A DNA stretch of 64,000 nucleotides from Heterocephalus glaber (lineage: Eukaryota; Chordata; Mammalia; Rodentia; Bathyergidae): assembly GCF_000247695.1 (NCBI RefSeq), contig NW_004624747.1, positions 9,370,732-9,434,731 of the forward strand. The letters run 5' to 3'. The notes beneath the pieces were generated by a model. That model had not been told where the DNA came from. It was given only the letters and a program-made list of their open reading frames with translations, and made no database searches. Of this stretch, positions 6,866 to 35,327 are shown in pieces. Positions within the stretch are counted from its first letter, which is position 1. Each line of letters starts with the position of its first letter. Made by a program: the position numbers and the translations under genes.

Positions 6866-6869
6866 GCTG

Positions 6870-16546: not shown

Positions 16547-16767
16547 CCTTTAGAAAAGTGGGAGGATACAAGCAGCTACAGCGTAATTACTTCTACACCA
16601 TCCCGGGAAAGACCAGTGAAGGAAACTGGACTGCCAAGCCAGAGTGCTACATCCCTCGCCAGGATGCTTTCCATATCTTCCGAGATCTCGTCTCTGGAGA
16701 CTTCGCCTGGCCCAAACTTATCCTTGGTGCCACTACTATCTCCTTATTCTATGGGTGTGCTGATCAG
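16547..16767 (+). CDS. SGLT-family gene, exon 8-equivalent
   Basis: The exon is 221 nt (73 full codons), with acceptor GCTTTTTTAAG and donor GTAATT. It begins FRKVGGY, contains the N-glycosylation sequon Asn-Trp-Thr at the position of SGLT1 Asn248, then CYIPRQDAFHIFRD, and ends ISLFYGCADQ. The corresponding SGLT1 end is LTLWYWCTDQ. Tyr290, Cys292, Asp294 and Gln295 are kept, but Trp289 is Phe, the sugar-stacking Trp291 is Gly, and Thr293 is Ala. SGLT1 Glu225 is Lys here. The reading frame is intact. Confidence 0.94.
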
Positions 16768-17154
16768 GTAATTAAAGATATGGTCCCTACAGTGATTGTT
16801 CTTGGGGATGGGGTCTTTGGAACATTCCCTGATTGGCAAAAGTCTCTGCAGCCACTGAGAGCTATGGCCTGTCTGCTCTCTGTGGTCAGGGCTGTTTTCC
16901 ACTTTTTACTTATGGCTAAATAATGACATTGTAAGAAATTATCTTTAAAAGCAGATTTTTCCCACAGGTTCATCTAGAATATGTCAACTCTTTACATTTT
17001 TTTTTGTCTTTCCATCATTATCTAAAATGCAGAGTTTTTTAAAAGTGGAAAATAGATGTATTTTTTGTTTTGATTATAACAGTGATACATTATTTTAGAA
17101 TGCCATTACTGTATCATGAAGTATGTCAGAATACTATCTAACTCACAGATGTGG

Positions 17155-17335
17155 TTTTTTTCTATACTGAGGATCAAATCCAGAGGTGCTATACCACTGA
17201 ACTACGTGCCCATCCTTTTTTCATTTTTTGTTTTGAGACTGGTTCTAAGTTACCCAGGCTGGGCTCAAACTGGCCCTCCTGCCTCAACTTCCCAAGTAGG
17301 TAGGATTACAGGTGCACCATCATACATGTACATCT
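17155..17335 (-). mobile_element. ID/B1 dimeric SINE, antisense
   Basis: TGAGGATCAAATCCAGAGG...CTGAACTACG followed by TTGAGACTGG...AGGATTACAGGTGCACC. Confidence 0.75.
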
Positions 17336-17507
17336 TAAAGAAAAAATGATACCATAAGCACCTATGTGACCATTACCTCAGTTAAAAATAAAACATAGCC
17401 ACCACCTTAGAATAAAAATGGCATGTCTTTACTGTTTAAAAAGTCACAATATAAAGAAAAGTTCAAAGATGAAATCACCAAGGTCCCATCAAGAAGTGAC
17501 TGGTATG

Positions 17508-17665
17508 GCTGGGTGAGATGAGGCAGAAGAATCACAAGTTCAAGGCCAAAATGGGCAATTTAGTCAAAAAAATAAAAAGGAACTAGCTAAGATGTAGCTC
17601 AGTGGTAGAGTGCTTGCCTATCATTGCAAGGCCCTGGTTTCTAATACCAGTACCACAAAAATAAG
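17508..17665 (+). mobile_element. Deleted B1/ID dimeric SINE
   Basis: A shortened B1 half is joined to an ID half, GATGTAGCTCAGTGGTAGAG, with an A-rich tail. Confidence 0.65.
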
Positions 17666-17837
17666 AAGGGGTTGTAGGAGAAGTAGTAGCTACAATATTT
17701 TGGTGAACATGCTTCTAGACACCTTTCAATACATATAAACAAGTAGAAATGTACAAATATTTTATATAAATGAAATTAGTCTATCACTGCTCTCTTTTAC
17801 CTCATGGGTTTCCTTTTACTCAAAAATACATTGCAGG

Positions 17838-17928
17838 GGTTAGGGGTGTAGCTCAATGGTAGAACACACACTTAGCATGCACAAGACCCTGGATTCAAGT
17901 CCCAGCTCTACAAAAAGTACATGTTGCA
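17838..17928 (+). mobile_element. ID-like SINE
   Basis: GGGGTGTAGCTCAATGGTAGA...CAAGACCCTGGATTCAAGTCCC, then a short A tail. Confidence 0.75.
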
Positions 17929-17931
17929 CAC

Positions 17932-18240
17932 TGTCTTAGTCACTTTTCTCATTTGCTGCGACAAAATATTTAGCACCCACAATTTAATGGAGGAGAGGTT
18001 TGTTTTGGCTCATTTTTGCAGTCCATGGTTGGCTGACTCCAAGACAGAAGTGGCATTGTAAAAGGGGCGCCAGAGGAAAGCCGCTCATGCCGTGGTGATA
18101 TAGTACCCTTCCAGATGCCCTGGGATCCACCTCTTCTAACTAGCTGTCTACAGCAAGTTACCTATAGTGCCCCACAATCGAATCATTTTGCAAACACATA
18201 AGGCTTGTGGGCCCACTTTAGATCTAAATAATAACACACA
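17932..18240 (-). mobile_element. Rodent MaLR-type LTR, antisense
   Basis: It begins CTTAGTCACTTTTCTCATTTGCTGCGACAAAATATT, the reverse of the LTR end seen at 23.2 kb (GAGAAAAGTAACTAAG). Family assignment (MT/ORR1-like) is by pattern only. Confidence 0.55.
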
Positions 18241-18412
18241 CTATATATATATTGTCACTATATAATTGTCAACATTTTCTTTTTTTTAACATTTTCATTT
18301 TTAATGGCAGTATAGTTTCTGCTATGTAATGTTCTAAAATGTATTTAACCAGTTCTCAAAGTGACAAATATTAGGTGGCTTTTAATGTTCACTATTAAAG
18401 ACACTGATGTTG

Positions 18413-18572
18413 GCCAGGGATTTAGCTCAGCGGTTTCTAGCTTGTAAGTTAGAAAATCATTCATTAAAAACTATACATTAGGGCTGGCGATTTAGCTCAG
18501 TGGCACCACGCCTGCCTTGCAAGCACAAGGTCCTGAGTTCAATAGCCTGCACCAAAAAAAAAAAAAAAAAAC
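18413..18572 (+). mobile_element. Truncated plus full tRNA-derived SINE
   Basis: A 30-nt fragment, GGCCAGGGATTTAGCTCAGCGG, lies about 40 nt before a full copy at 18482-18572 with poly(A). Confidence 0.8.
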
Positions 18573-18999
18573 CCAAAAGCAAAAATTATACTTTAAAACT
18601 TAATGCTAGTGTAAACACTACATGTCAATTTTTAGAGCAAATTCCAAGCAGCATATTAACTGAGTGTTTCAAGAGGCATGAAAGGTTAACCATAATGAGC
18701 TAAACACTCAGATTCAGAAATTAGGTAGATAGCCACCAACAAAAAAAGAGAAAGAAAGAGATAAATCTGCAGGCAAACAGAAATAAAATAATAAAGACCA
18801 TGGCAGAGATTAATTAAGTCAAAAGTAAAAAGGTAGAGATGTTAATAAAACCAAAAGATTATAATGTAAGTTGTTGTTATACTGTTAATGACAAGAAAAA
18901 ATATGTATTTGTTTGATACAGCAAATATTTTCTATCAGTGGTTGGTTGAATCCCCCAAAGCAGAATCTGCAGACAGAGAACCAACTGCACAACTATACC

Positions 19000-19765
19000 C
19001 AACATAGTTGAATCTTCAAAGTGTGATGCTAAATAAAGGAAGCTAGACACAAAAGGTTATATACTGCATGATTACATTTGTATAAAATTCAACACATGGA
19101 CAATACTAAAATATATGACACAATTACTTTTTAAAAGAAAGGAAGAAATAAAATAGTCACCAAAGCAGTCATTGCTAGAGTGAGGGAAGAGTTTAAAGTT
19201 TAAAAGAGGTGGGCCGGGGATTTAGCTCAGTGGTTTCTCCACCCGCTGCACAAGTGCAAGGCCCCGAGTTCAATCCCTGGTACCAAAAAAAAAAAAAAAA
19301 AACAGGCATGCATAGCAACATTATCCACAGCAACAAAAGGTGGAAACAACCCAAATGTCCATCAGTGAGTGAATGGGTAAACCAAATGTGTATCCATATG
19401 TTAGAATATTATTCAGCCATAAGAAAGAATGAAGTACTCCTACATGTCGCAACTTAGATGAATCTAAAAAATGCTATGTTAAGTGAAAGAAGCCAAAAAC
19501 AATGGTCACCTATTCGATGATTCGTTTTATATAAAATATCAAAAATAAGCAAATTCATAGAGATAGAAATCACATTAGTGCTTGCCAGGAAAAGAGAGAG
19601 GAATAATGGACAATGATTACTTAATGGATATGGGTATTCTTCTGGGGTGATGAAAATGTTTTGAAACTAAAGAAAGGTAGTGATTGTACAACACTGTGAA
19701 TGCATGTAATCCTTCACTTTAAAATGGCTAATTGGATTTTATGTGAATTTCACCTTAATTTTTTA
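19000..19765 (+). mobile_element. L1M 3' end split by a SINE
   Basis: Classic L1M end: GGAAACAACCCAAATGTCC, TATTATTCAGCCATAAG, GAATGAAGTACTCC, TGTACAACACTGTGAATGCA. It is preceded by related 3' sequence and split by a SINE at 19213-19303. Confidence 0.7.
19213..19303 (+). mobile_element. tRNA-derived SINE
   Basis: CCGGGGATTTAGCTCAGTGG...GTTCAATCCCTGGTACC plus an 18-nt poly(A). Confidence 0.88.
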
Positions 19766-20164
19766 AAAAGTTACACGGAAATTTCTGTGGCAGGATGAAG
19801 GGTTCCATTTCTTGATTTGGATGATGGTTACACTGTATGCTATCTAATGTGCCACATAACTGTGTATTTTTAATGTACTTTTCTGTGCTATATCAGCATA
19901 AATTGGGTTTAAACATTATGTGGAAGAAAAGCATGCCAAATAGCTAACCCAAGTTTGAAAATGAAGAGCAAAAGGGCTAAACTTGTCCTACAAGATATTT
20001 AAAAAATAGTTTATACTACCAAGAATAGACACATAGACTAATGGAATAAAATAAAAGGTACAAAGAAAAATGTAAATACTTATGAGGCTCCACAAGTCAA
20101 TAGGGGAGCTACTAACTCTTCAATGAGATTAGAAAAATCAGCTTACTTTTCGAGTAACAAAACT

Positions 20165-20552
20165 TCATCCCCTAACTAGCTGCCATAGTTTGGATCTTGA
20201 ACGTCCCCTGAATGCCCTTGTGCTGAAGGATTGATCTTCAGCCTGTGATACTATCATAAAGTGGAACTCACAGAAGGTAAGGCCCAATGGAAGAAAGTTC
20301 ATTGAGGGGCATGCCCTTGATATATGGACCCTGACCCTCCTCCTCTTTCTGTTGCTTCCTGGCAGCAATGAAGTGAGCAGCTTCATCCACCATATGCTCC
20401 TGCCATGGTATTCTGCCTCACCATAGACGCCCCAACAGGCCAATTGACAATAGACAGAAACCTCCAAAACTATGAGCCAAAATAAACTTTCCTTTTTAAA
20501 TTTGGTTATCTTAGGTATTTGTTGCAGTAATGGAAAGCTGACTAACACACTA
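20165..20552 (+). mobile_element. Rodent MaLR-type LTR
   Basis: TAGTTTGGATCTTGAACG...GAGCCAAAATAAACTTTCC...GTTGCAGTAATGGAAAGCTGACTAACAC is the MaLR LTR pattern, including its own AATAAA. The interior shows no gene. Confidence 0.65.
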
Positions 20553-20859
20553 ACACTCTTATAAAGATAGACTTCAGGTGAATTTAAATTGCACTTCTCT
20601 GATAACTCTCTGATACATATTTATTGGCATTTACATTTAAATTTTTTCCTATAAATTGCCTGTCACTATCTTTTGTCCATATTTCTGTTAGAGCTCCTTT
20701 TTCTTGTTGATTTTGTTGTTAGTCTTTTGTCCATGAGAAACATTTATAATAATCTCCTTTAATCTGTCATCTGGAAACTTTGTCTTTGATATTCTTTGTT
20801 AAAAAGTCCTTCTATGTAAAGTGATCAATACAGTTTGTACTTTCTCCCTGTCTAAAACA

Positions 20860-21470
20860 TACTCTCTAACAGAGAGTTATCAGAGAAGTGCAATTTAAAA
20901 TCATGAGACTGGCAAACATTAGAAAGAATCATGATGCCAAGTCTTAGGGAGGTTACAGATGTCTGTAAACCCTTGTATACTTTTGGTGGACGTATAGATT
21001 AGTTCAGTCTGTTCTGGAGGGTGATCTGCCGGGATTTAATAAAATTTAAGCCAAGTGTGATGGCACACACTTGTAATCACAGCACTTGAGAGCTTGAGGT
21101 AGGAGGATCTCCATGAGTTTGAAGACAGCCTGGGCTAGATAGTGAGTTCAATGCCAGCCTGAACTACATAACAAGACCCTGTCTCAATCAATAAATAAAA
21201 AAATTAAGTATACTGTGCTCTGTTACCTAGCAGTGATGACCCCTAGAGTCTACCTAAAATGTCTTCACACAAGTTCATGAAGGACTATATATGAGATGTT
21301 CATCACCATATTTATTGTGTTGCTGTAAAGTTTGTAAATGAAATGAGAGGGATAATACTGTACAGTGCTGTGTAGCAGCTAGAAACAGTAGGCTACATGT
21401 ATATACAACATGTTGATAGATCTGTAAAATCTACCAAGAAAAACAAGAATCAAAATGAGATTTAGAACAC
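20860..21470 (+). mobile_element. Old L1 ORF2 end with B1 insertion
   Basis: AAATCATGAGACTGGCAAAC, CCTTGTATACTTTTGGTGG, then CACCTAGCAGTGATGACCC. Split by a B1-like SINE at 21052-21200 (TGATGGCACACACTTGTAATC...CAAGACCCTGTCTCAA). Confidence 0.6.
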
Positions 21471-21559
21471 AATACATGGCTAGTCTCTGAAATGTATCCA
21501 TTTTTTGTTTGTATCCAGTCCCATCTATTTATTGTGGGGTTTTTGTTTATTTTGTTTTG

Positions 21560-21645
21560 TTTGGGCACAGTGTTTTCTTGGCTGGAGATTAAACCCAGGA
21601 CCATGCTAAGCATACCCTCTGCCACTGAGCAAATCCCTATGTATT
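21560..21645 (-). mobile_element. ID-like SINE, antisense
   Basis: GAGATTAAACCCAGGACC...CTCTGCCACTGAGCAAATCCC. Confidence 0.65.
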
Positions 21646-21821
21646 TTCATTGTGCCACTTTAGAAATTTTTTTAATCTTTCTATACTTTTCTTTTCAACT
21701 TCTCTATAATAATAACTTGAATAGTTTCCCCTGAAATTCTGCTTCTGGCAATAGGTAAACTATATTTCCTGAACTACCTTCCAATACAAATTCCTAGGAT
21801 ACTGGATAAAATATAAAAAGT

Positions 21822-22025
21822 CTCTCTCTCTCTCTCTCTCTCATTTATTTTGCATTACTGGAGATTGAACCCAGAGCCTTCACACTGGACTATATTCCTA
21901 GCCTTTTTTATTTTTTATTTTGAGACAAGTTCTCACTAAGTTGTCCAGGCTGGGCTCAAACTGTGATCCTCCTGCCTCGGCCTCCTAGAATTCTGGGATT
22001 ATAGGCATGTGCCACCATGCCTGCC
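21822..22025 (-). mobile_element. CT repeat and antisense ID/B1 dimer
   Basis: A (TC)n tract at 21822-21842 precedes GAGATTGAACCCAGAGCC and the B1 half ATTATAGGCATGTGCCACC. Confidence 0.75.
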
Positions 22026-22371
22026 CAAGCTTGGTTTTTAAAGGTTTAGATTTAAGCAGCATGGTATAAACAGTAGAAAGGCTCTAAGTTAATGAGTGAC
22101 AAAAAATAAATCCTCTGTGTAGAGCTTAAGGTCTTGAAAATCTATAGCCTCATTGAAATGATACACTAGGAAAAAATCTGCCTACCACCAGAGAGAAAGA
22201 ACAACAGCAAAAAAAAGTGCCTGGAGGTGAATTACAGGAAGTGAGAATTCTACTCTACAGTTTAATTAAACTGTGTGGCGAATCCCATGTGAAAAATGAA
22301 CATAAACTCATCCAACATTTGTTATGACCAGTCAGCTGTGGTGACAGATTCTCTCTGTAGGATGTACCCCA

Positions 22372-22684
22372 GCAATAGTTTGAATGTTTATGTTCCCTCC
22401 AAAATTCACATTGAAATTTAATCCCCATACAACATTATTAAAAGGTGAGGCTTATAAGAGGTGATTAGACAATGAAGGTCCTGCTCTCATAAATGGGATT
22501 AGTGCTCCATCCCTTCAATCATGCAAGGATAGTGTTCAAGGCTTTATCTTGGAAGCAGAGACAAAACCTTTATCAGGCATGGAATCTGTTGCCATCTTAA
22601 TCTTACACTTTCTAGCCTTCAAATCTGTGAAAAATAAATTTCCATTGTTTATAAATTTCTCAATCAAAGCCATTTTGTTATAGG
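22372..22684 (+). mobile_element. MLT1-like LTR
   Basis: AATAGTTTGAATGTTTATGTTCCC, AATGGGATTAGTGC, AAATAAATTTCCATTGTTTATAA, CATTTTGTTATA follow the MLT1 consensus. Confidence 0.65.
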
Positions 22685-22689
22685 AACAT

Positions 22690-23217
22690 GTTATGACTTG
22701 TATCTAGAGGTCTCCCAAAAGCCTCATGTGCTCATGGATGAGGCTTTTTAGAGGTGGCTGGCCCTAGGGTGTGTGAATGTGGATTAAGGGTGTGATATAT
22801 ATATTTTTAAATTTTTTTTTCAGTACCAGAGATCAAACTCAGGACCTTGTGCTCACAAGGCAGGCAGGCACCTCTGAGCTAAATTCCCCGCCCCTAAGGG
22901 TGTGAAATTAGGATTAAGGGTGTGGATAATGGAAGCCCCACCCTGAATGTTGGTGGTACCACCCAAAAGGTAGCAAATGGAATGAAAGAGAAAGATGGAG
23001 GTCAAGCTACAGCTCACTGCTTGCTGCCTTCTGCCTGAAACTCCATGGACTATTTCTCCTCTGTGATAGCCCTCTGACATACCACCTTGCCTTGGAGCCA
23101 CCTGACTATGGACTGAAATCTCTACAAACTATGAGTCAAAATAAACCTTTCCTCCTTTAACTTCTCAGTGTTAACTATTTTGTCTCAGCAATGAGAAAAG
23201 TAACTAAGATATGACAG
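22690..23217 (+). mobile_element. Rodent MaLR-type LTR with SINE insertion
   Basis: The start GTTATGACTTGTATCTAGAGG and the end TCAGCAATGAGAAAAGTAACTAAGATATG define it. An antisense tRNA-derived SINE at 22808-22895 is flanked by TAAGGGTGTGA. Confidence 0.7.
22808..22895 (-). mobile_element. tRNA-derived SINE, antisense
   Basis: Poly(T), CAGTACCAGAGATCAAACTC, then GAGCTAAATTCCCCGCC. The duplication TAAGGGTGTGA lies on each side. Confidence 0.85.
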
Positions 23218-23299
23218 GAACAAATTATGACAACCCTCAACTAAGGTCTTTCAAGATTCTCATAAACAAATTCCTGATCAGTTTGAGCTACTAACCCCA

Positions 23300-23940
23300 A
23301 ATTAGAAAACATGAAAGAGTTGAACTACAATGACCAAACCACAGAATTAGTACTCCCAAATTTTAGAAAATTGAAGTTTTGGATAAATTTTTAAAGTTGA
23401 AGAAATAAAAGTGAAAATAAAAAAACATTTTTAAAATTCTATCAAAAAAGTCAGCCAGATTTGAAAATTCTAACTTCTAACAAAGAAAAGTAAATTTACT
23501 GAAAGGTAAAACTCAGTAACTGTTAATATAACAGCTTAAACAGAGCTGAAGAAAAAATATTGTAACCTGAGAGAACTGAGGAAATTGCCCAAAAAGTACA
23601 AAAAGTCAAAGTGTAAAAGGAAATAACATAGAAGACAAAATCAGGGTTAAAATATATCTCATTTGAGTTTTCAGAAGAAAGAGAAAAGCAACATTCAAAG
23701 AGAGAATGACTAACCCACACATCAAACGTATACTTTCAAGATATCAAAGACAAAGAGATTTTAAGAAGCCATCTAAAAGAAAAGATTACTTATAGTAGAA
23801 GACAGTTATACTGACAGCAGACCTCAGCAGCTATAATTTAAGCCAGAAGGTAGAAAAGTAATTTTTTTTCAAACTATGGGGAGAAATGCCGGTTCCAAAT
23901 TACATGCCCAGCTAAAAGTATTATTCGAAAACAAGGGCAA
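23300..23940 (+). mobile_element. HAL1/old L1 ORF1 fragment
   Basis: The right end, GACAGCAGACCTCAGCAGC...AAATTACATGCCCAGCTAAAAG, matches the ORF1 C-terminal region seen at 32.1 kb and 3.9 kb. Heavily decayed. Confidence 0.5.
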
Positions 23941-23942
23941 GC

Positions 23943-24070
23943 CGGCTATGGTAATACATCCCTGAAATCTTGGCTACTTAGAAAGCTGCAGCAGGAGGAT
24001 CACAACTTCAATGCCAGCCTGAGAAACTTAGAAAGATCCTATCTCAAAATCAATCAATCAATCAATAAAG

Positions 24071-24115
<45 letters not shown>

Positions 24116-24175
24116 TGTAGTTCAGTGGTAAAGCACCACGGGGTTGGATCCCCAGTACCACACACAAACACACAC
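23943..24175 (+). mobile_element. B1/ID dimer with GATA linker expansion
   Basis: A B1 half, (AATC)n and then (GATA)n at 24071-24114, is followed by ID half GTTCAGTGGTAAAGCACC. The tetranucleotide has expanded inside the A-rich linker. Confidence 0.75.
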
Positions 24176-24505
24176 ACTACACAGAGAGCAAAATAAAGAT
24201 ACAATCTTCCTTACAAAAGACTGAGGAATGTATAGACAGAAAATGGAGGTACTGAAGAACAAGAAAGAATAGTTAGCAAAGACATTGACAGGCATATGAG
24301 TAAATCTAAAGTGTTGGGTAAAAGCAATAATTACTAAAATGGGAAGTAAAAACCAAACAAGTATAAGACCATAATGTAGTTATATCTGTCTATGGACTTT
24401 AAATTGTTCAGAATAAGAGAAGGGCTACTGATTTTCCTTGGACTTTAAGTTGTATGTACATTAAAAATTTTAAAAGTAATCATTAAAAAGCATAGAAGAG
24501 ATTTA

Positions 24506-24568
24506 TCCGAGTGCCTCAAAAGCGCAAGGTCCTGAGTTCGATCCCCAGTACCAAAAAAAAAAAAAACC
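24506..24568 (+). mobile_element. Internally deleted tRNA-derived SINE
   Basis: GATTTATCCGAGTGCCTCAAAAGCGC, GTTCGATCCCCAGTACC, poly(A); flanked by CATAGAAG on both sides. Confidence 0.8.
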
Positions 24569-24664
24569 ATAGAAGTAGAATATGTAACTTTCCAACTTGT
24601 AAATGAAATGTTTTAAGAAAAATGTGTTTCTTGTTTAATTTTGTCGGGGGGGCGTGGCATTGTT

Positions 24665-25112
24665 TGTTATCTTAGTTGTTTTTCTCATCACTGAGACAAA
24701 AACCCAACACTCACAAGTTAAAGGAAGAAAAGTTTATTTTAGCCCACAGTTTGTAGAGGCTTTATTCTGTAGTCGATTGGCTCCAAGGTAGGGCAGTACG
24801 GCAGAGGGGCATCGCAGAGGAGAAACAGCTCATGGCATGGCAGGCAGGAAGGCAGAGGGCAGCAAGCAGCAAGCAGCAGCTGCAGCAGCAGCAAAGTAAG
24901 CCTCCTTTTCCCTTTTATCCCATCCAGGCTACAAGACTTTTGGATGGTGCCACCCACACCCAGGGTAGCCCTTCCCATTATCTACTAGGGGACTAATTTA
25001 GTACTACACACCCTTAATTCCAGTATCACATGCCCTAGATCCAGTCAGCTCTGAAAAGCCCCACCTATAAGCACATGATGTTTTCAAGGAACATCTGGAT
25101 CCAAGCCATAAC
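24665..25112 (-). mobile_element. Rodent MaLR-type LTR, antisense
   Basis: Reverse complement of the 22.7-23.2 kb LTR type: TTATCTTAGTTGTTTTTCTCATC at the left and GGATCCAAGCCATAACA at the right. It contains an internal AGC/GCA repeat near 24860-24895. Confidence 0.65.
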
Positions 25113-25114
25113 AT

Positions 25115-26452: not shown

Positions 26453-26588
26453 GTTTCTGTCCAGCGGGGCCTGGCAGGGAAGAACATATCTCACATGAAA
26501 GCTGGCTTCCTTCTGTATGGGTACCTGAAGTTGTTGCCTATGTTCCTCATGGTGATGCCAGGAATGATCAGCCGCATCTTTTACCCAA
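26453..26588 (+). CDS. SGLT-family gene, exon 9-equivalent
   Basis: The exon is 136 nt, with acceptor CCTTGGCAG and donor GTAAAT, and ends in phase 1. It encodes [14 protein letters not shown]...[23 protein letters not shown]. This corresponds to SGLT1 residues 296-340 and is the most conserved exon seen. Arg300 and Lys321 (in GYLKL) are retained. Cys301 is Gly. It follows the largest intron in the window, 9.7 kb. Confidence 0.94.
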
Positions 26589-27938
26589 GTAAATTCTTTT
26601 TTTTAACCCAAGTAAATTTTTTATTCTAATGAGCTCACACCAATTAGCTACTCCTCTTTCAGAGAAATAGTATTTGGGGTTTCGGGTCTCCTATAGTATA
26701 CTGGTCATTGGGGTGCCCCAGAATACTTCTTAACAGAAGTCTAGCAGAAACTATTGATATACACAGCAAGTCAGAAATACTATACCAGGGTGATAAGTTC
26801 AGACAGGAAAGAGTAGATCAGTGCCTTTTCTCAAGTGTCAGAGCTTCCTTCTCTCTATCAGGGGTTGCAGACTTTGGGACAGAGTCTGCAGGAAGATTGA
26901 GTTGCTCCCATCATATCACTAGTATTATACTAGGCACACCCGGTGTGCCAAGCACTGTGAGAAGATCTAATGGATGTTGCCGTTGTTTCTCACGGCCCCA
27001 AGTACAGTGGAGAGAGCGCCATGCAGCCACTAAAGTGAGCCTGATTCAGAGCAAGGCCCACATTAAATACTATTAAAGCATTTGTGTTTTCCCTAACGAG
27101 TTATCATAATTCCGTGGCTGTACCTCATCCCCACTTCCAGTCGCTAGTTTTACTAGCTCATCCTTACTAGATTATTCTGTCTCTCAGGGTAACGAGTCTG
27201 TTTATTCATTAAATTGAATGAAGCACTTCGCTCTGATTGGCACAGCCACAGGGGCAGAGCAGGTGACTCCTGGGAGAGTCTCTTGCTATAATGCTTTTGA
27301 CAAAGGGAAATAAAATGTAGGATGCTTTTCAGTAATAAGAAATATGTTCAATAGATATCTCTAATTCTAATCTCTTCTTCTATTTGCTCCTGAGGCATGC
27401 CTCCATTTCTTTCCTAATTTATTCCCAGTTTTAACTGAGACTAGTTTCAACATTCTCCAATTTGCTTTTCAGCTGTTAAGCAGTACTTTGTTGATAATTC
27501 CCTAAAAGGTTGGAAATAGGTCCCTCTGCTAAGAACTGCAGTCCCAACTTCTTACTCTGAATTAACAACTCTGTCAGGTCCAAGTAGTAAGGTTATGGGT
27601 TGCTCACATGTTAGTATGTGACAAATAATCCACTGGTTTTCCTAACACCTAGCTAGAATCATTGGAAGGCTTATTGAGGGCCCATGACTTGCCTTGGGTC
27701 ACTTGATGAACTGGGGGGAGTACGATTCATTTGACTCCCAGGAGCCTGAGTCCTAATCCTTTTCTCCAGCCTCAGCTCCCAAGAATGTGAGGATCATGAA
27801 TTGGAGCTGACACCGGTGGACTGAGAATTTAACATTTACATGTGCATATATAATTCCTAATTTGCTTCCCTTACCCTGGGCTCATATTTAAGAGCTTTAA
27901 GGCCAGTGTGTTGATGTGACTGTTACTTCTTTTTGCAG

Positions 27939-28046
27939 ACCAAGTGGCTTGTGTTGTACCTTCAGAATGTGAAAAGTACTGCGGCGCCCAACGCAGTTGT
28001 AGCCCTGTCGCTTATCCGAGGATGGTGGTATCATTGCTGCCTACTA
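27939..28046 (+). CDS. SGLT-family gene, exon 10-equivalent (cysteine loop)
   Basis: The exon is 108 nt, with acceptor CTTTTTGCAG and donor GTAAGA. It encodes the extracellular cysteine loop QVACVVPSECEKYCG...SC...AYPRMVV. The four cysteines matching SGLT1 345, 351, 355 and 361 are all present, so the loop disulfides are probably formed. The split codon at the 3' end joins A with GC of the next exon to give Ser, where SGLT1 has Gly. Confidence 0.93.
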
Positions 28047-29513
28047 GTAAGAAACAGGCCCTGCTGCTGAGAGCCATAGAATCCCATGGGAGCCTAGCCC
28101 CTAAGGCTATAAGTGGCCAGTTAGGAGTGAGGTTTCTAGAGGTGACTTTCTTACCAGCTAGCCTGTCATTCTGGATGGAAATACAGGTTGCCAGGTGGGA
28201 GGGACATTAGCACCATGAAGGGCACGTTTGCGTGCCCTGACAAAAGGATCAAGGCCTCCTCCCTCTCTATTCTTTGCACACTGGTAGTGCATATCTTCTT
28301 GGAGGCAAAATCTGCACATTTTGTTTGCATTATTTATGTCACCTGATGAGCTGGTTCCCTTGCTCATTCATCCAAAAAATGGAGTCTACGCTGTGTAAGG
28401 CATTGTTCTAAGCCATGAAAACAAACACAAAGATGAGTGAAACTAGTCCTGCACTTGAAGAGCTCACCATCTTCATAGGCATAAGCATAGGAAAGGAGAT
28501 GAGCAACTATCCAACAGTCAGATGACCTTTTGAGATGATAATGAATTCACATATTCATCACACCTTTCTCCCCAAATTCCACTGAAATGGCCAAATGAAT
28601 ACATTTTTTTAAAATTCTGTGTTAGTTCTGGAGAACAATAGGTTGGAAAACTTGAGACATTTCCACAAAATACACTATAGGTGGAATCAGATTGAGTGAA
28701 AACTAACCATCCCACAGTTCAGAAAGTGAGTTGTCTGGACTCCCCACCTAAGCCTCGAGAAATGCCACAGCTTCAAACAACCAAGGCTGCAAGAAAGTGT
28801 TGACAGTTGAAGGAAGGCAAATCCAAGGACCCTAGTCTATGTCTGTCTACTGGCACACTAAGGACATTTCGCCACAGTAGGCTTCCAGTTTAGATCCTGG
28901 TTATCTTCCCTCAGGCTTTCCCAATAACACATAGGAAAAATATCTTCTAACAGAGCAGTTAACATCCCTTCCACATGGCCTTCCAAGTAGTAATACCAGA
29001 TTATTGTTTATAACTAGCATTTGTTGAGTTCTTGCTCTGTATTGGGCATTGTATCAACTCATCTACTCAAATGTATCTTAATATTAACAGCAGCTGTATG
29101 TGGTAAATACTATATGCCCACTCTACAGATGAGGGCACTGTGGCACTGGGAAGGACATCACTTTCATATGGTCTGAACCTTCTCTGAGGCTCTTACTCTT
29201 CACAGGTAAGAGAGGAAAGCAGTGGCAACCATCTCACAGGACTGTACTTAAGATGGTACAGGCTGATGTCTGAAGAGATGTTCTGGTACAGACTAACCAC
29301 CCAGGAGATATTAGCTCCTATTATTATATGAAAACACAGCAGGAAACAATTAAGTCTTGTTACGAAGCAAGAAAACATGTAATGTAATAATCTATCTTAG
29401 GTGGAACTCTATTCCAAGTAAAATTTGGATGTTTTGTAGGAGGAAATTTGGGATTTGGAAAAGTTCCTTAGGAGGCCTGTGTCATCTGGCATGATGAAAG
29501 AGGTGGGAGAGGG

Positions 29514-29593
29514 CTGGAGATGTAGCTCAGTGGCGCTGCACCTGCCTGGCAAGTGCAAGGTCCTGAGTTCGATCCCTGGTACCAAAAAAAAAA
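29514..29593 (+). mobile_element. tRNA-derived SINE
   Basis: GGCTGGAGATGTAGCTCAGTGG...GTTCGATCCCTGGTACC and poly(A). First of two sense copies only about 40 nt apart. Confidence 0.87.
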
Positions 29594-29634
29594 GTCTCTT
29601 GTAATAAAGTCAATCAATTCTCAAAAACTTTAAG

Positions 29635-29725
29635 GGCCGGGGATGTAGCTCAGTGGTGCTGTGCCTGCCTGGTGAGTACAACCCTGAGTTCGATCCCCAG
29701 TACTGCAAAAAAAAAAAAAAAAAAA
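29635..29725 (+). mobile_element. tRNA-derived SINE next to SGLT exon 11
   Basis: GGCCGGGGATGTAGCTCAGTGG...GTTCGATCCCCAGTACTGC and poly(A) ending at 29725, leaving only 36 nt to the exon at 29762. The branch point must lie in this short gap or in the SINE. Confidence 0.88.
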
Positions 29726-29761
29726 GAGCTGGGAATCCAGTAAGTATTCTTTCTCCTCCAG

Positions 29762-29912
29762 GCCTACAGGGCATGATGTTGTCCACAGTATGTGCCACCA
29801 TCATTTCCTCCTTGACTTCTGCTTTCAACAGTGTCAGTTCCCTGTTCACAATGAATATCTATGCCTGGATGCGGCCTCGGGCCTCTGAAAATGAACTCAT
29901 GATAACAGCAAG
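29762..29912 (+). CDS. SGLT-family gene, exon 11-equivalent (Na2 site)
   Basis: The exon is 151 nt, with acceptor TTTCTCCTCCAG and donor GTGAAG. It encodes LQGMMLS...[37 protein letters not shown]. The paired serines matching SGLT1 Ser392 and Ser393 of the Na2 sodium site are kept, and Ser389 is Thr. Intact Na2 serines suggest sodium binding was not lost. A tRNA-derived SINE poly(A) ends only about 36 nt before this exon. Confidence 0.94.
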
Positions 29913-30519
29913 GTGAAGTATTCCTCTAATCGCATTAGTTAATACTGTCAGTGAGTGAAATTAGTTAATACTGTCACCCCAGTATGTTATTTGTGAGGCT
30001 GACACACTGTATATAGAATCATCTTATTTATGAAGTTTTGTTGGTTTGGAGAGATTTTGCTTAGTTGGGTTTTTATTGCTGCAATTTTGCAATGAAGATG
30101 TATGTATTGCTTTGATAATCACAAAGAAAATGGTTTCTGCTTGTTTAAAAAAAAGAAAGAAATAATCACAATGATATAAATGAGCATAGTTTATTGTACC
30201 CCTCCCAATAGTTCTTTTGGGGAAATTTACATAAACTATCTCATCTCATTTAGTCCTCATGACAACTGTTAAATGTAAGTTTTACGGTTCGGATTCTCAT
30301 TTGCAAATGGAAAAATAGTAGCTCAGAGGGGGAAACTCAGACTTGTCTGTCTGGGGCCATGAAATTAACTGTCATGCCACACAACATCTGTTAGGTCCCT
30401 GTCTGTAAGGGACTTGTTCCCTAAGGTTTCACCCTGGCCACTCATGAGCCACATCCAGCCCACGCATCTTTAACAGGCCCTACATTGTGGCTAAAAAAGA
30501 ATCACTTTTTTCTTTTATT

Positions 30520-30660
30520 CAGGACTGGGAATTGAACCCAGGAACTTGGCCTGAGCTACATCCCCACCACACACCCTCAACCCCCAGCTTTTTTTGGCAC
30601 AAATCCTCCTGCCCAGCCTCCTAAGGTGCTGGGATTACAGGTGGGCACCACCCTGCTCAG
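30520..30660 (-). mobile_element. ID/B1 SINE, antisense
   Basis: ACTGGGAATTGAACCCAGG...CTGAGCTACATCCCC followed by GGTGCTGGGATTACAGGTGG. Confidence 0.7.
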
Positions 30661-30677
30661 TTTAAAACACTGTCTTT

Positions 30678-30760
30678 GGGCTGGGAATTTAGCTCAGTGG
30701 CACCACACCTGCCTCTCAAGCACAAGGTCCTGAATTCGATTCCTGGTACCAAAACAAAAC
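30678..30760 (+). mobile_element. tRNA-derived SINE
   Basis: GGCTGGGAATTTAGCTCAGTGG...ATTCGATTCCTGGTACC with an (AAAAC)n tail. Confidence 0.87.
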
Positions 30761-31059
30761 AAAGAAAACCACTGTCCCTTTATGTCACCTCAAGGTGCAT
30801 GTTTGCTATCTAGTCTATCTCTCTCATCCCTGCAAGTGTTTGAGTTTGCCTTTATATTTGTACTGCCATTCCATGGTTGAAAATGCCTTTTTCTGAGAAA
30901 GTTTAAGAAACTGATTTGTTTTATTAAGTTGTTAGAGAATATAGGGAAAAAGAAAACATTCTTTTTAGGAAGCTCAAGCCAGTGATACCAAAACATAACA
31001 AACATAGCACAGAAAAATAATAAAACTAAAGGCTAATCTGACTTTGAAATATCAATACA

Positions 31060-31359
31060 AAAAATAGAAATATAATGTTAGGCACAAATCCAACAATACA
31101 TTAAAAGTGATACATCATTACCAGCTGTGCTTTTTTCTCAAAAAATAGGACCATTCAGTATTAGAAAATGTATTAAATATAACTCACACAGATCAAAAAA
31201 GGAAAATTATAGGTACCTACTCACAGGTAATGAAAAGATATTGCAAAAAAAGTGCTTTTCAACATGATAAAGCATATCTGTATCATGCTAAAAAGCCTAT
31301 ATATACTTAATGAAGAAGTTAGAGAAGAACAAGGTAAGAATATTCTCCTTCAGCATGGC

Positions 31360-31360
<1 letters not shown>
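31060..31360 (+). mobile_element. Old L1 ORF2 fragment
   Basis: ACCATTCAGTATTAGAAAATG...TTCAACATGATAAAGCATATC resembles the ORF2 RT region; no intact frame. Confidence 0.5.
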
Positions 31361-31394
<34 letters not shown>

Positions 31395-31403
31395 CAGACA
31401 GAT
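31361..31403 (+). repeat. GATA/GACA microsatellite
   Basis: About nine GATA units followed by two GACA units. Confidence 0.95.
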
Positions 31404-32320
31404 TAGACCCACAGGTGATGTTAGCACACAAGGACTTTAAAATATCCATGATTAAGGGGCCAGGAATTTAGCTCAGTTGTTCCGCCACCTGCCTGCAAGC
31501 ACAAGGACCTGAGTTCGATCCCTGGTACCAAAAAAAAAAATTCATGATTAATATAGGCAGCAAAATAGAGGGGGAGATATATAAAATAGATGAAAAGATT
31601 GAAATTTTTACCTGAGGATTAGAATTTATATAAAAAGATTGAAAATGTTCTTTCTAGAACTGAAAAATAAAAATGTGAAATTAAGACCTCAGTGGATGAG
31701 TTAACATTGAGTTGGATATAGCAGAAGACATAAGTATTGAATTGGAAATTAATGAATAATATCAGACTGAAATGCACAAAACAAGTAAGATACACATAAA
31801 ACACAATCAGAGTAATAATATGTGTAACTGAAATCACAGAGATAGAGGGGAACAAGTTAGATAGAAATAATTTTGAAAAAATAATGACTAGAATCTTTCC
31901 ACAATTGATGGACAACTGTCTAGAGTCTTAAGAAACCCCACAAATTAAAGCAGGACAAACACAAAGGAAACAATACTTAGACTATATTTTAGTGAAACTT
32001 CTGGAAACTGAAGGTAATAAGGCATTTAAAACAGCCAAAGGAAAATAAATCATATTACCTTTAAAGAAGCAACATAGAGACTGGTTGATCTTCAACAGAA
32101 ACTATGGAAGCCAGAAAAAAATATCTGCAAATGGTAGAGGAAAAAGCTACCATACTAGAATTCAATACACATCAAAAATATTCTCCAAAATGAAGGTGAA
32201 ATAAATATGTTTTTAGATAAGTACAAAGGTTGGAAGAATGTACTGCATTAGACTTGCACTATAAGAAATACTAAAGGAAGTTCTTCAGGCTTAAGAAAAA
32301 TATCCCAGGCAGAATTGAAC
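31404..32320 (+). mobile_element. HAL1/old L1 ORF1, split by SINE
   Basis: ACACAAGGACTTTAAAATATCC, CAGAAACTATGGAAGCC, GAATTCAATACACATC, AAATACTAAAGGAAGTTCTTCAGGC match the HAL1/L1 ORF1 and downstream pattern. The SINE at 31457-31540 is flanked by CATGATTAA. Decayed. Confidence 0.65.
31457..31540 (+). mobile_element. tRNA-derived SINE
   Basis: GGCCAGGAATTTAGCTCAG...GTTCGATCCCTGGTACC and poly(A); CATGATTAA/T on both sides. Confidence 0.87.
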
Positions 32321-32325
32321 TTTAT

Positions 32326-32430
32326 CAGTTTTTTAAAATTAATTTTATTGGTACATTCTAGGTATACAATATAATGACATTCATCATTGGGAATTTGCAC
32401 CTTTATATAATCTCACTTGGGTCTTATTTC
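32326..32430 (-). mobile_element. Very short L1 3'-end insertion
   Basis: About 105 nt of antisense L1 3'UTR (TTTATTGGTACATTCTAGG) lies between two copies of CAGAATTGAACTTTA. Confidence 0.85.
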
Positions 32431-32522
32431 AGAATTGAACTTTAGAGAAGAATAAAGAGCACCAGAAAGAGTACATATGTGTAAATATAAATGAACATTG
32501 ACTGTTTAAAACATTAATGAGA

Positions 32523-32925
32523 ATGCATATTGAGGCCATACTCTTAAGTGAAATAAATAAGACACACATGTGTAAATAGTGAATAGTTTCTCTAGTGTGA
32601 GAAACTGAGAGTGTAAATAAGGATTAAAAGGATTAATAACTAATAATTGATACTTTGAAATAGGAAAAGGTCCAAAGAGGTAGGGGTGGTGGGAGGAGAT
32701 GGGGAAAGGAAAGAATGGAAAGGAAAAATTAGGAGAAAAGAAAAAAAAATGGAAACAAAGTCTATGTAAATAGGGAAGGGTGGAGGGGTGAAGGGCACAC
32801 AGGTAATGGGAAAAAATAAGAACCAAGATACATCATGTACAGGTACAAGCACCCAAAGATAAATGTAAACATATTGTATACCTAAAATGTACCAATAAAA
32901 GAATTTTTAAAAAATAAATAAATAA
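32523..32925 (+). mobile_element. 5'-truncated young L1 3' end
   Basis: It starts in the region after the ORF2 end and carries the full purine-rich 3'UTR to ATGTACCAATAAAAG and an A-rich tail. Direct repeats of AAAACATTAATGAGA flank it. Confidence 0.88.
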
Positions 32926-33327
32926 AACATTAATGAGAAAAAATGTCTGTGGATTTATAACATATAGAAGTAAAATATGACAATAAAAGCAGAGAAAATG
33001 GGAAGCTAAATCAAACTTAAATATTCTAAGATTCTAGAATTATTGGAAATATGAAAAAAGTAAAACTTGTCCCAGAGTATAACATTAGAAATGCATTTAA
33101 TCTCTAAACTGACCAATAAGAGAATGGTTCAAGAATGTTTAAGTAACAAGTTAATAGGAGGAAATAGAAAATAACTAACAAAATATATGAGCAGCCCAAG
33201 AGAAATCTAAAAAGGGATGAAAAGAATAGAAAACAGGTGATTTAAATAGAAAACAATTACTGTGATAGGATGGCACATATCCAAATACATCAGTGATTCC
33301 ATGAAATGTAAATGGACTAAACATCAG

Positions 33328-33400
33328 GAGCTGAGATGAGAAAATCATGTTTGAGGTCAATCTGGACAACACAGTGAGACCTCATCTAAAGAAGAAGAAA
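33328..33400 (+). mobile_element. B1-like SINE fragment
   Basis: GAGGTCAATCTGGACAACACAGTGAGACCTCATC is the right part of a B1-like unit. Confidence 0.5.
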
Positions 33401-33519
33401 CAGGCCTTGAAGAGGTCACTAGGTATGAAGGGCTCTTTCCCCCATGAGTGGGACTAAGGAACATTAGACTGCCATGTCCTGCCACCATGTGATGACAATC
33501 TTCTCTAATTTCTCTCACC

Positions 33520-34010
33520 TTTTTAGTTTTCTGTGTGGAGATCTTGCACTTCTTTCATTAGGCTTATTCCTGACTAGCTTGTGGTTTTAATGCTACTTTT
33601 AACAGAATTGTTTTCCAAATCAATTCCCCATTATTTGCTACTAGTACAAAGAAATACAATTTCTAATTGACCTTATATCTTGTGAACCTTTCTAAATTCA
33701 CTTAACTGCTTCTAGTACACATTTTGTAGATTCCTTGAGATTTTCTGTGCATACGACCACATCTCCATGAATAAAGATAGGCTTCTTTCTGATTTGTATT
33801 TTTGTTTTCTTACTTTATTGCTCTGTATATAATCCTGAGTACAGTATTCAGTAGAAGTGGTGAAAGTGGACCCTTGCATCATTTCCAGTCTTAGGGATAA
33901 AGTGTTTAATCTTTCACCCTGAAGTATGACATTAGCTGTAGGATTTTTATAGATGCTCTTTATTATGTTGCAGAAATTCCCCTCTGTTCCCAGGGCACTT
34001 CGGAGCAACA
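33520..34010 (-). mobile_element. Old L1 ORF2, antisense (part 1)
   Basis: On the + strand: TGGACCCTTGCATCATTTCC, ACCCTGAAGTATGACATTAGC, TTTATAGATGCTCTTTATTATGTT. Same type as 14.4-15.0 kb; it resumes at 34830. Confidence 0.65.
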
Positions 34011-34288
34011 AGAGCTAGATTAAAATTCCAGACAGAGCCCACTATTAGGAGATAGAAAGACCCATACTATTTGCATCAGCCATATGGAATTGAAATGTCA
34101 AATTGAGGGTTCTCAAACATGCACAAGTTTCCCCCACGAAACATCTATTTAATTCCACTGTTGTACATTGTGGGAAACCAAAGGGCTAAGTTAAAATCTT
34201 CAGAAAAGTGGAGTTGAATTTTCTAGAGTTGAATTTTCTAGTTGAATTATGTCTAGTGCTTGTCTGCTGCTATTAAAATTATCATGTG

Positions 34289-34385
34289 GGTCCGGGGATT
34301 TAGCTCAGTGGTTTTGCCACCTGCTGCACAAGCGCAAGGACCGGAGTTTGATCTCTGGTACCAAATTAAAAAATTAATAAATAAA
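34289..34385 (+). mobile_element. tRNA-derived SINE
   Basis: GTCCGGGGATTTAGCTCAGTGG...CTCTGGTACC with a TTAAA/AATAA tail. ATTAAAATTATC before and ATAAAATTATC after suggest a duplication. Confidence 0.83.
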
Positions 34386-34464
34386 TAAAATTATCGTATG
34401 AGTTTTTTTCTTTTTCATCCTGTTAACACAGAAAATTACAATTATTGGGGGTTTTTTATTCATT

Positions 34465-34800
34465 AAGTTTAAAATGGAGTACTACTCAGCCATAAAGAAT
34501 GAGAAACTAGAGACATTTATAGCTAAATGGGTCCACATTGAGGCGATACTCTTAAGCAAAATAAATAAGACACACATGTGTGAATACCGAATAGCTTCTC
34601 CGGTGTGAGAAACTGAAAGTGTAAATAAGGATCAAAATGTAAATAAGGATCAAAAGTAACAAAATAAGTATCAAAAGTGTAAGTAAGGATAATAGATAAT
34701 GTGAAATAGGAAGAAAAGGTCCAAAGAGGAAGAGGAAGAGGGAGGGATAGGGGAAAGGAAAGAAGGGAAAGGAATAAATATGAGAAAAGGAAAAAACAAA
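34465..34800 (+). mobile_element. L1 3'-end piece inside old L1
   Basis: AAAATGGAGTACTACTCAGCC to the purine-rich UTR (GGGAAAGGAAAGAAGGGAAAGG). It stops before the usual AATAAA end, so both sides are truncated or rearranged. It contains a local duplication of GTAAATAAGGATCAAAA. Confidence 0.75.
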
Positions 34801-34829
34801 TACAAGTATTGGTTATTGAGTGTTAAACC

Positions 34830-35125
34830 AACCTTGCAAACATGAGATAAACCATGTTTGGGCATATTGCATTTTTTATGTATCACTGGGTTTGCTTTGC
34901 TAATATTTTGTCAAGGATTTTTCCATCTATGCTTATGAAGGCTATTGATCTATGATTTTCTTAATGTCTTATATATAATTTGGTTTGGTGGTTTTCTGCC
35001 CTGATAAAATGATTAAGGAACTAATTTTTCTGATTTCTAAAACAGTTTGTATGTGATTGATATTATTTCTGTATAATAAAAGTGTATAGTTTTCAGCTAT
35101 TTTATTGGCAGGGAGAAAGCTCATC
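34830..35125 (-). mobile_element. Old L1 ORF2, antisense (part 2)
   Basis: AACCAACCTTGCAAACATGAG...TTGTCAAGGATTTTTCC...TATGATTTTCTTAATGTC, the reverse of RT-domain L1 sequence. It ends only about 30 nt before SGLT exon 12. Confidence 0.7.
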
Positions 35126-35158
35126 AAATTTTCCCTGATTTTTTTGTTTAACTTACAG

Positions 35159-35327
35159 GTTTTTTATTATAACCTTACTTGCTACCACCATTGTTTGGAT
35201 CCCTATTATAGAAACAGGTCTCAGTGAAAATTTATTTGAATATATGCTGATAGTGAGGAGTTGCCTGACGCCACCCATTACTGCCCTCTTCATACTTGCT
35301 GTGTTTTCCAAGAGAGTCAGTGAGGAG
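35159..35327 (+). CDS. SGLT-family gene, exon 12-equivalent (sugar-site helix)
   Basis: The exon is 169 nt, with acceptor TTTAACTTACAG and donor GTGGGT. It encodes the helix TLLATTIVWIPIIETG, then SENLFEYMLIVRSCLTPPI, then LFILAVFSKRVSEE. The matching SGLT1 segment is QLFDYIQSITSYLGPPI. The key sugar ligand Gln457 is Leu here, Asp454 is Glu and Thr460 is Arg. SGLT3 has Glu at 457. The PPI motif and the KRV(N/S)E end are conserved and there is no gap. Confidence 0.94.

What the first reader, a model, noticed from the sequence alone, without database searches (positions are those of the whole stretch)
16547..35327. Intact SGLT-like transporter whose sugar-binding residues are replaced
Sequence: exon lengths and phases allow an ungapped alignment to SGLT1 numbering. 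Trp291 is Gly and Trp289 is Phe (ISLFYGCADQ). Gln457 is Leu, Asp454 is Glu and Thr460 is Arg (FEYMLIVRS). Asp204 is Glu and Glu225 is Lys. Kept are Tyr290, Asp294, Lys321, the Na2 serines 392/393, the four loop cysteines and the Asn248 sequon. Known: Trp291 and Gln457 contact sugar in SGLT1, and the single Gln457Glu change is linked to the sensor-like behaviour of SGLT3. Inference: the protein keeps fold and sodium coupling but has lost or changed its substrate, so it may be a sensor, leak channel or transporter of something else. The open 606-codon frame argues against simple decay.
Basis: partly seen in the sequence, partly recalled or inferred. Interest (0 to 1): 0.75.

Follow-up and report, generated by a model that had tools for sequence, protein, structure and literature searches.

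The report
Rodent-altered SGLT paralogue beside antibody genes
This is an intact naked mole-rat gene for a relative of the intestinal glucose carrier, a little-studied member found in many placental mammals; most of its odd sugar-pocket changes are shared with the other rodents compared, so it probably moves something other than glucose.

Summary
The window (Heterocephalus glaber) holds exons 5-15 of an SGLT gene at 8620-43621, 606 codons, all GT/AG. Exons 1-4 lie upstream in the same genome and complete a 726-codon frame. All named residue changes are there.

The gene is not SLC5A4, which the species has separately. It is the orthologue of mouse Gm5134, in a fast-evolving clade of many placentals beside SGLT1 and SLC5A4. 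W289F, D204E and a basic residue at 460 are in every rodent orthologue row with data; W291 is G in all but 2 (A). Q457L is hystricognath, plus 3 other rodent rows. E225K also occurs in SGLT1 and SLC5A4. Pocket sites are no more changed than the rest (7 of 14 against 246 of 536).

Mouse Gm5134 RNA is found in testis, and its inactivation reduced plasmablasts and germinal-centre B cells (PMC6345566, PMC12850638). Here the gene lies between Ig lambda constant genes and RSPH14. Most likely a working Na+(/H+)-coupled carrier with poor or no glucose transport. Substrate unknown; dN/dS not measured.

The parts
8620..8724 (+). exon 5 (SGLT1 residues 125-159), phase 0
   Evidence: tblastn with SGLT1; splice sites tacag|GTGGT..TCTTG|gtgagt
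10345..10450 (+). exon 6 (about residues 160-194)
11392..11472 (+). exon 7, carries D204E
16547..16767 (+). exon 8, carries E225K, the N248 sequon, T287S, W289F, Y290, W291G, D294
26453..26588 (+). exon 9, carries R300 and K321
27939..28046 (+). exon 10, extracellular loop cysteines
29762..29912 (+). exon 11, Na2/Na3 residues S392, S393, T395, S396 (kept), S389T
35159..35327 (+). exon 12, carries F453, D454E, Q457L, T460R
37617..37829 (+). exon 13
40787..40889 (+). exon 14; its end (RGITWRRLPRFPATP) is the reading of the other hystricognath models too
43194..43621 (+). exon 15 with a longer linker, the last membrane helix and the stop (..YFA*)
45732..45974 (-). neighbour: exon of RSPH14 (convergent)
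   Evidence: PDB hit Radial spoke head 14 homolog, E 2.4e-35 for this piece joined with the next
47806..47883 (-). neighbour: another RSPH14 exon piece

Best explanation
SHOWN: the gene is the naked mole-rat orthologue of mouse Gm5134, an SGLT paralogue found in many orders of placental mammals and distinct from SGLT1 (SLC5A1) and SGLT3 (SLC5A4). It has 15 exons and an intact 726-codon frame, and the guinea pig orthologue is predicted to fold like SGLT1. INFERRED: it makes a working alternating-access membrane carrier driven by Na+ (possibly H+, because the Na3-site acid D204 is E). The floor of the substrate cavity is opened by W291G, a positive charge is put beside it at 460, and in hystricognaths the outer-gate glutamine Q457 is a leucine. 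N78, H83, E102, Y290 and K321 are kept. It is therefore most likely a poor or non-transporter of glucose that either carries another small polar solute, perhaps an acidic one, or passes cations when a ligand binds, as SGLT3 does. Use in plasma cells and testis is transferred from mouse, not shown in mole-rat.
For: P0001 of H. glaber matches all 606 residues; next hits are Fukomys, Chinchilla, Cavia, then mostly other rodents including mouse P0018. Tree: the clade is 100/100 with 29 rows; SLC5A4 is a separate 100/100 clade that holds the species' own SLC5A4, P0171. FastTree of 246 proteins puts 86 rows in the clade. Full frame and splice sites. AlphaFold model of the Cavia orthologue: mean pLDDT 79.3, pTM 0.81; best PDB match human SGLT1 7wmv, TM 0.89 by query length. 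Residue table. Q457C raises glucose K0.5 14-fold (PMC6286348, passage); Q457E uncouples SGLT1 (PMC2857651, passage); Y290 and W291, with N78, form the first insulating layer below the sugar (PMC10203128, passage); D204 is a Na3 ligand. Mouse Gm5134: mRNA in testis (PMC6345566, passage); named among the positive regulators whose inactivation reduced plasmablasts and GC B cells (PMC12850638, passages), in a screen of 379 genes high in plasmablasts.
Against: I saw no transport measurement for any member of the clade. Pocket sites are not more changed than the rest of the protein. Five sugar-contacting residues are kept, so some sugar may still be handled. The two mouse reports that I saw (passages only) do not concern transport; three more papers that hold the name Gm5134 were seen only in the listing. 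The clade's exact sister is unresolved (AU p 0.206 for joining it with SLC5A4).
Confidence: 0.66

Rival explanations
1. The gene is under weak constraint and drifting towards loss in mole-rats; the pocket changes are relaxation, not a new job.
For: Pocket changes match the background, 7 of 14 against 246 of 536. Long hystricognath stem, 0.41 changes per column. Mole-rat pair distance 0.122 against 0.085 for SLC5A4. With the second site class the conserved/variable contrast for NMR-Fukomys is 39/361 against 24/155, p 0.14, and for NMR-Chinchilla p 0.10. The NCBI model X2 starts inside exon 4, and the Fukomys model lacks the first part of exon 8.
Against: All 15 exons, all splice sites and the frame are intact. 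119 of 124 sites at least 97% conserved in the other rows are kept. NMR-Cavia conserved 30/238 against variable 84/298, p 1e-5, and p 0.0004 with the second class. Long models in many placentals. Inactivation phenotype of the mouse orthologue.
Confidence: 0.2
2. It is still a sugar or polyol cotransporter with altered specificity, like SGLT4, SGLT5 or SMIT2.
For: N78, H83, E102, Y290 and K321 kept; SGLT fold of an orthologue. In the clade outside rodents W291 is kept in 43 of 44 non-lagomorph rows and 9 of 9 lagomorph rows.
Against: W291 is W in all 35 SGLT1 and 120 SLC5A4 rows, in SGLT2 and in the recalled SLC5A9, A10 and A11. A basic residue at 460 is found in none of 35 SGLT1 and 120 SLC5A4 rows. 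Q457 changes lower sugar affinity or uncouple.
Confidence: 0.25
3. It works like SGLT3: a ligand-gated cation leak or sensor without transport.
For: Residue 457 is not Q in the SGLT3s of PMC2857651 (E, G or S; passage) and is L here. D204 is replaced; [quoted passage not shown]
Against: Most rodent orthologue rows outside hystricognaths keep Q457 (23 of 26). D204E keeps the charge. I saw no recording.
Confidence: 0.2
4. It is simply the SLC5A4 (SGLT3) gene of this species.
For: SLC5A4 is the nearest named sensor; the AU test does not reject a clade of this group with SLC5A4 (p 0.206).
Against: The species' own SLC5A4 (P0171) sits inside a separate 100/100 clade; 51.5% identity to it in the core. 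Further SSF exon matches lie near 8.50-8.53 Mb (+) and 8.57-8.60 Mb (-) of the same contig.
Confidence: 0.01

Closest known systems
Mouse Gm5134 (P0018), rat LOC365549 (P0014): 'SGLT1-like'
   Same: Orthologues: same clade at 100/100; F289, G291, E204, E454 and a basic 460 shared; 63.3% core identity to the mouse protein.
   Different: Mouse and rat keep Q457 and E225; the mole-rat has L and K, and R instead of K at 460.
SLC5A1 / SGLT1
   Same: S392, S393, T395, S396, N78, H83, E102, Y290, K321, loop cysteines, end at ..YFA.
   Different: 54.1% core identity to the human protein; W291, Q457, T460, D204, W289 replaced; longer linker before the last helix.
SLC5A4 / SGLT3
   Same: Residue 457 is mostly not Q (1 of 120 rows has Q); possible sensor-like behaviour.
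   Different: Separate clade; SLC5A4 keeps W291 (120 of 120) and D204 (120 of 120); 51.5% core identity.
SLC5A2 / SGLT2, SLC5A9, A10, A11
   Same: SGLT-type sequence; SGLT2 structures are the next-best fold matches.
   Different: Lower identity (45.8-48.7%; A9-A11 sequences recalled); the one row of each keeps W291 and Q457.

Membership tests
SLC5 / SSF sodium symporters | SSF domain match | tested here: met
   The Pfam PF00474 search of the own genome matches places of exons 3, 5, 9 and 11 of this gene on C18, each marked over the cut-off; P0001 bears PF00474.
SLC5 / SSF sodium symporters | LeuT/SGLT fold | tested here: met
   Model of the Cavia orthologue, TM 0.89 to 7wmv; the mole-rat protein itself was not modelled.
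SLC5 / SSF sodium symporters | Na2 site serines 392/393 | tested here: met
   Both S.
Functional SGLT (Na+/glucose cotransporter) | Sugar-contact set N78, H83, E102, Y290, W291, K321, Q457 | tested here: not met
   5 of 7 kept; W291G and Q457L.
Functional SGLT (Na+/glucose cotransporter) | Na+-coupled sugar uptake | not testable with these tools
   Needs oocytes or a flux assay.
SLC5A4 (SGLT3) orthologues | Position inside the SLC5A4 clade | tested here: not met
   Outside; the SLC5A4 clade 100/100 holds P0171 of the same species.
Gm5134 orthologues | Position in the clade with mouse Gm5134 | tested here: met
   100/100, FastTree 1.0.
Gm5134 orthologues | Same gene neighbourhood in mouse | not testable with these tools
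   Mouse DNA not held; in mole-rat between IGLC-like exons and RSPH14.
Gm5134 orthologues | Rodent residues F289, G291, E204 | tested here: met
SGLT3-like sensors | Ligand-evoked current without transport | not testable with these tools
   No electrophysiology.
Pseudogene | Stops, frameshifts or lost splice sites | tested here: not met
   None in 15 exons.
Pseudogene | dN/dS near 1 | not testable with these tools
   Only protein sequences of other species were available; protein-level proxy.

The most novel reading that the evidence does not exclude
A placental SGLT paralogue next to the immunoglobulin lambda constant genes has become a plasma-cell (and germ-cell) carrier. In rodents its glucose pocket was rebuilt (W289F, W291G, basic 460, D204E) for another, perhaps acidic, solute or for H+-coupling, and B-cell responses depend on it; its expression may be or have been driven by the lambda locus enhancers.
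Probability: 0.14. Interest if true: 0.78.

Novelty: new variant of a known kind. Interest (0 to 1): 0.5.

Why it matters
A review counts 12 human SLC5 members (abstract passage of PMC7462921). This clade would be a further SGLT-type member in many placentals. I saw no description of its transport, and no clade member from monkeys, apes or humans among the 246 rows placed; whether they lost it was not tested. In mouse its inactivation is reported to weaken plasmablast and germinal-centre responses (PMC12850638, passages), so a substrate would matter for B-cell metabolism. Rodents offer a natural W291G, which tests what the floor of the SGLT sugar pocket does. It also warns that the database name 'SGLT1-like' need not mean a glucose transporter.

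Tried and rejected
SLC5A4 orthology: rejected by the tree. Decay: not supported, but not closed for lack of coding DNA of other species. Sister of the clade (SLC5A4, or SGLT1+SLC5A4): AU tests p 0.206 and 0.219, unresolved. A frameshift in exon 14, which I suspected: dropped, because the Fukomys, Chinchilla and Cavia models read the same frame. Literature: rat LOC365549, 0 papers; Gm5134, 5 papers, passages of 2 seen, 3 seen in the listing only; SLC5/paralog/'lost in human'/'SGLT1-like' terms, 15 listed of 313, none seen to be on this gene; SGLT with testis and sperm terms, 8 listed of 23, none opened after that search. Extra copies of the gene in the genome: the protein search of the own genome did not complete, so only the SSF family search (45 matches, best candidates only) bears on it; its matches at 9.35-9.41 Mb of C18 are the four of this gene. 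P0002, an older model that repeats and lacks exons, stayed in the counts, so the naked mole-rat gene stands for 3 of the 7 hystricognath rows there. P0084 (Tupaia), first put in the clade by me, fell with SGLT2 and is not in the 86. The rows new (P0241-P0272) were not aligned or placed.
Full report
WHAT IS THERE. The finding's coordinates cover exons 8-12 of an SGLT gene on the + strand. With human SGLT1 as query the window shows 11 coding exons, 8620-43621, numbered 5-15 as in the usual SGLT1 layout (the numbering is recalled). All introns begin GT and end AG, and the joined frame has 606 codons and a stop in the SGLT1 position after ..YFA. SGLT1 residues 1-124 are absent from the window. The window lies at G000:C18:9370732-9434731, and exons 1-4 were found upstream at C18:9347902-9348027, 9349032-9349100, 9355074-9355178 and 9356849-9356908, each with GT/AG sites where an intron adjoins; the ATG stands in CACCATGG. 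The complete frame is 726 codons.

WHOSE GENE. A protein search returns a 623-residue model of Heterocephalus glaber (P0001) that is contained whole in this frame. The next other species are Fukomys, Chinchilla and Cavia (77-81% in the search table), then mostly other rodents (squirrel, kangaroo rat, hamster, rat, mouse Gm5134), then non-rodents.

WHICH FAMILY MEMBER. A tree of 49 proteins (IQ-TREE, 657 columns) puts the gene in a 29-row clade with 100/100 support: Xenarthra, Afrotheria, Laurasiatheria, a strepsirrhine primate, lagomorphs and rodents, roughly in the order of species relationships. SLC5A4 is another 100/100 clade and contains the naked mole-rat's own SLC5A4 (P0171). The stem of the new clade is long (0.38) and so is the hystricognath stem (0.41). 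A FastTree of the 240 proteins fetched plus 6 others puts 86 rows in the clade; rows are not species, and the mole-rat gene has three. Its exact sister is open: joining it with SLC5A4 alone is not rejected (AU p 0.206), nor is an origin after the split from turtles (p 0.219). Among these 246 rows the clade's primates are Otolemur and Microcebus only, and the marsupial rows fall outside it. The 120-row list, made with a profile of the clade, names no monkey, ape or human as anything but SGLT1; its new rows were not placed. Both lists are capped, so absence in other groups is not shown.

THE RESIDUES (k of n rows, gaps counted as rows). W291: G in 24 of 26 non-hystricognath rodent rows (2 are A) and 6 of 7 hystricognath rows (1 gap); W in 9 of 9 lagomorph, 43 of 44 other clade rows (1 R), 35 of 35 SGLT1, 120 of 120 SLC5A4. 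W289: F in 26 of 26 and 6 of 7 (1 gap); Y in 9 of 9 lagomorphs and 40 of 44 others. D204: E in 24 of 26 (2 gaps) and 6 of 7 (1 gap); N in 8 of 9 lagomorphs (1 gap); D in 34 of 44 others. T460: K or R in 26 of 26 and in 6 of 7 (1 gap); R in 9 of 9 lagomorphs; M, L, K, T, R, I or S in the rest. Q457: L in 6 of 7 hystricognath rows (1 gap) and 3 of 26 other rodents; Q in 23 of 26, 9 of 9 lagomorphs, 17 of 44 others (H in 23). E225: K in 5 of 7 hystricognath rows (2 gaps), 1 of 26 other rodents, 3 of 44 others, and also in 2 of 35 SGLT1 and 8 of 120 SLC5A4 rows. In the mole-rat N78, H83, F101, E102, Y290, D294, R300, K321, S392, S393, T395, S396 and F453 are as in SGLT1; S77 is A and S389 is T. 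The finding's list is thus a mix: most changes are the rodent state of this gene, Q457L is hystricognath (with a parallel in three Peromyscus and Onychomys rows), and E225K is ordinary.

IS THE POCKET SINGLED OUT? No. Of 14 pocket sites that I chose (78, 83, 98, 101, 102, 283, 286, 287, 290, 291, 321, 453, 457, 460; drawn from passages of PMC10803289 and PMC10203128) 7 differ from human SGLT1; in the core 246 of 536 differ (Fisher p 0.79). The SLC5A4 of the same species differs at 7 of 14 with only 143 of 539 core changes. What stands out is single sites that are otherwise invariant, above all W291.

CONSTRAINT. No coding DNA of other species was at hand, so dN/dS was not computed. As a proxy I compared protein differences at conserved and variable sites. 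Class 1 (238 of 539 sites at least 97% the same in 157 SGLT1, SLC5A4 and SGLT2 rows): NMR-Fukomys 18/227 against 45/289 (p 0.0098), NMR-Cavia 30/238 against 84/298 (p 1e-5), NMR-Chinchilla 29/236 against 64/284 (p 0.003). Class 2 (372 of 539 sites at least 90% the same in 40 rows without SLC5A4, with the recalled outgroups): p 0.14, 0.0004 and 0.10; the same pairs for SLC5A4: 0.0017, 6e-7, 0.003. Distances are about 1.4-1.8 times those of SLC5A4 (0.122/0.213/0.179 against 0.085/0.122/0.116). Of 124 sites at least 97% conserved in the other rows the mole-rat keeps 119. So the gene is constrained, but less than SLC5A4, and the evidence within mole-rats alone is weak.

FOLD. AlphaFold2 of the Cavia orthologue (P0005, alignment of 40: 32 of the clade and 8 SGLT1/SLC5A4): mean pLDDT 79.3, pTM 0.81, under 50 in parts of 556-617, the linker before the last helix, and in two short stretches (1-3, 491-494). 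Best PDB match human SGLT1 7wmv, TM 0.89 by query length, 48% identity. The mole-rat protein itself was not modelled.

WHAT THE CHANGES WOULD DO (inference from passages seen). Hydroxyls of the glucose part of inhibitors are bound by residues that include W291 and Q457 (PMC10803289). In the occluded state N78, Y290 and W291 are the first layer below the sugar, and Q457 is among the residues above it (PMC10203128). Q457C raises the glucose K0.5 14-fold, and D204 binds the Na3 ion (PMC6286348). Q457E uncouples SGLT1, while E457Q turns SGLT3 into a transporter (PMC2857651). A glycine at 291, a leucine at 457 and a charge at 460 together make efficient glucose cotransport unlikely. The kept N78, H83, E102, Y290 and K321 argue that a polar solute is still bound. 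D204E may alter ion use; a 2001 paper whose title speaks of a glucose-gated H+ channel after neutralising a conserved residue is known to me only from a reference list and recall.

WHERE IT IS USED. In mouse, Gm5134 mRNA is spliced in testis (PMC6345566, passage). A B-cell CRISPR study chose 379 genes high in plasmablasts, and in its validation inactivation of Gm5134 and other positive regulators reduced plasmablasts and germinal-centre B cells (PMC12850638, passages); that Gm5134 is one of the 379 I take from its being a hit. In the mole-rat genome the gene lies between Ig lambda constant-like exons (C18:9280014-9298409; two copies without stops, the others partial or with stops) and RSPH14, of which two exon pieces are at 45732-45974 and 47806-47883 on the - strand; GNAZ follows. 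RSPH14 is the 3' border of the IGL locus in 5 of 9 species of an IMGT table, which also gives 'SLC5A1' as the 5' border in 2 of 9 (PMC8945572, passage); whether that is SLC5A1 itself or this gene I cannot tell. A link between place and plasma-cell expression is untested.

VERDICT. A real, intact gene; not a curiosity of one species but the hystricognath form of a placental SGLT paralogue that databases call 'SGLT1-like' and whose transport I did not find described in the lists and passages I saw. Glucose transport is doubtful; another substrate or a sensor/leak role is open.

Noticed in passing
G000:C18:9336090-9336198 (L009 5359-5467), 11.8 kb before exon 1: A degenerate second copy of exon 1 (VDLLENHDHFWNWSTTGIGMYS..), with GTG for the ATG and a change of frame: remnant of a partial duplication.
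   Followed up: partly
G000:C18:9280014-9298409 (L017-L019): Ig lambda constant-region copies, two without stops and identical in the matched protein stretch, others partial or with stops, about 50 kb before exon 1.
   Followed up: partly
window 43194-43621: The linker before the last helix is longer than in SGLT1 and somewhat repetitive (GEASR/GDLSR-like units); the Sciurus protein P0006 shows similar repeats.
   Followed up: no
protein P0003 (Fukomys): The model lacks the first 20 residues of exon 8 and joins to GKTSEGNW: alternative acceptor, or damage in that species.
   Followed up: no
lagomorph rows of the clade (9 rows): Own set of pocket changes: E102Q (9 of 9), D204N (8 of 9, 1 gap), R300L (9 of 9), Y290F (7 of 9), R460 (9 of 9), with W291 kept: a different route of change in the same gene.
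   Followed up: no
protein P0241 (Prochilodus, fish): A 1282-residue model scores highest with the clade profile; perhaps two SGLTs fused in one gene model. Not examined.
   Followed up: no
window about 5580-6950: Broken LINE-1-like frames (endonuclease-like motif, recalled) and many tRNA-derived short repeats through the introns (recalled).
   Followed up: no
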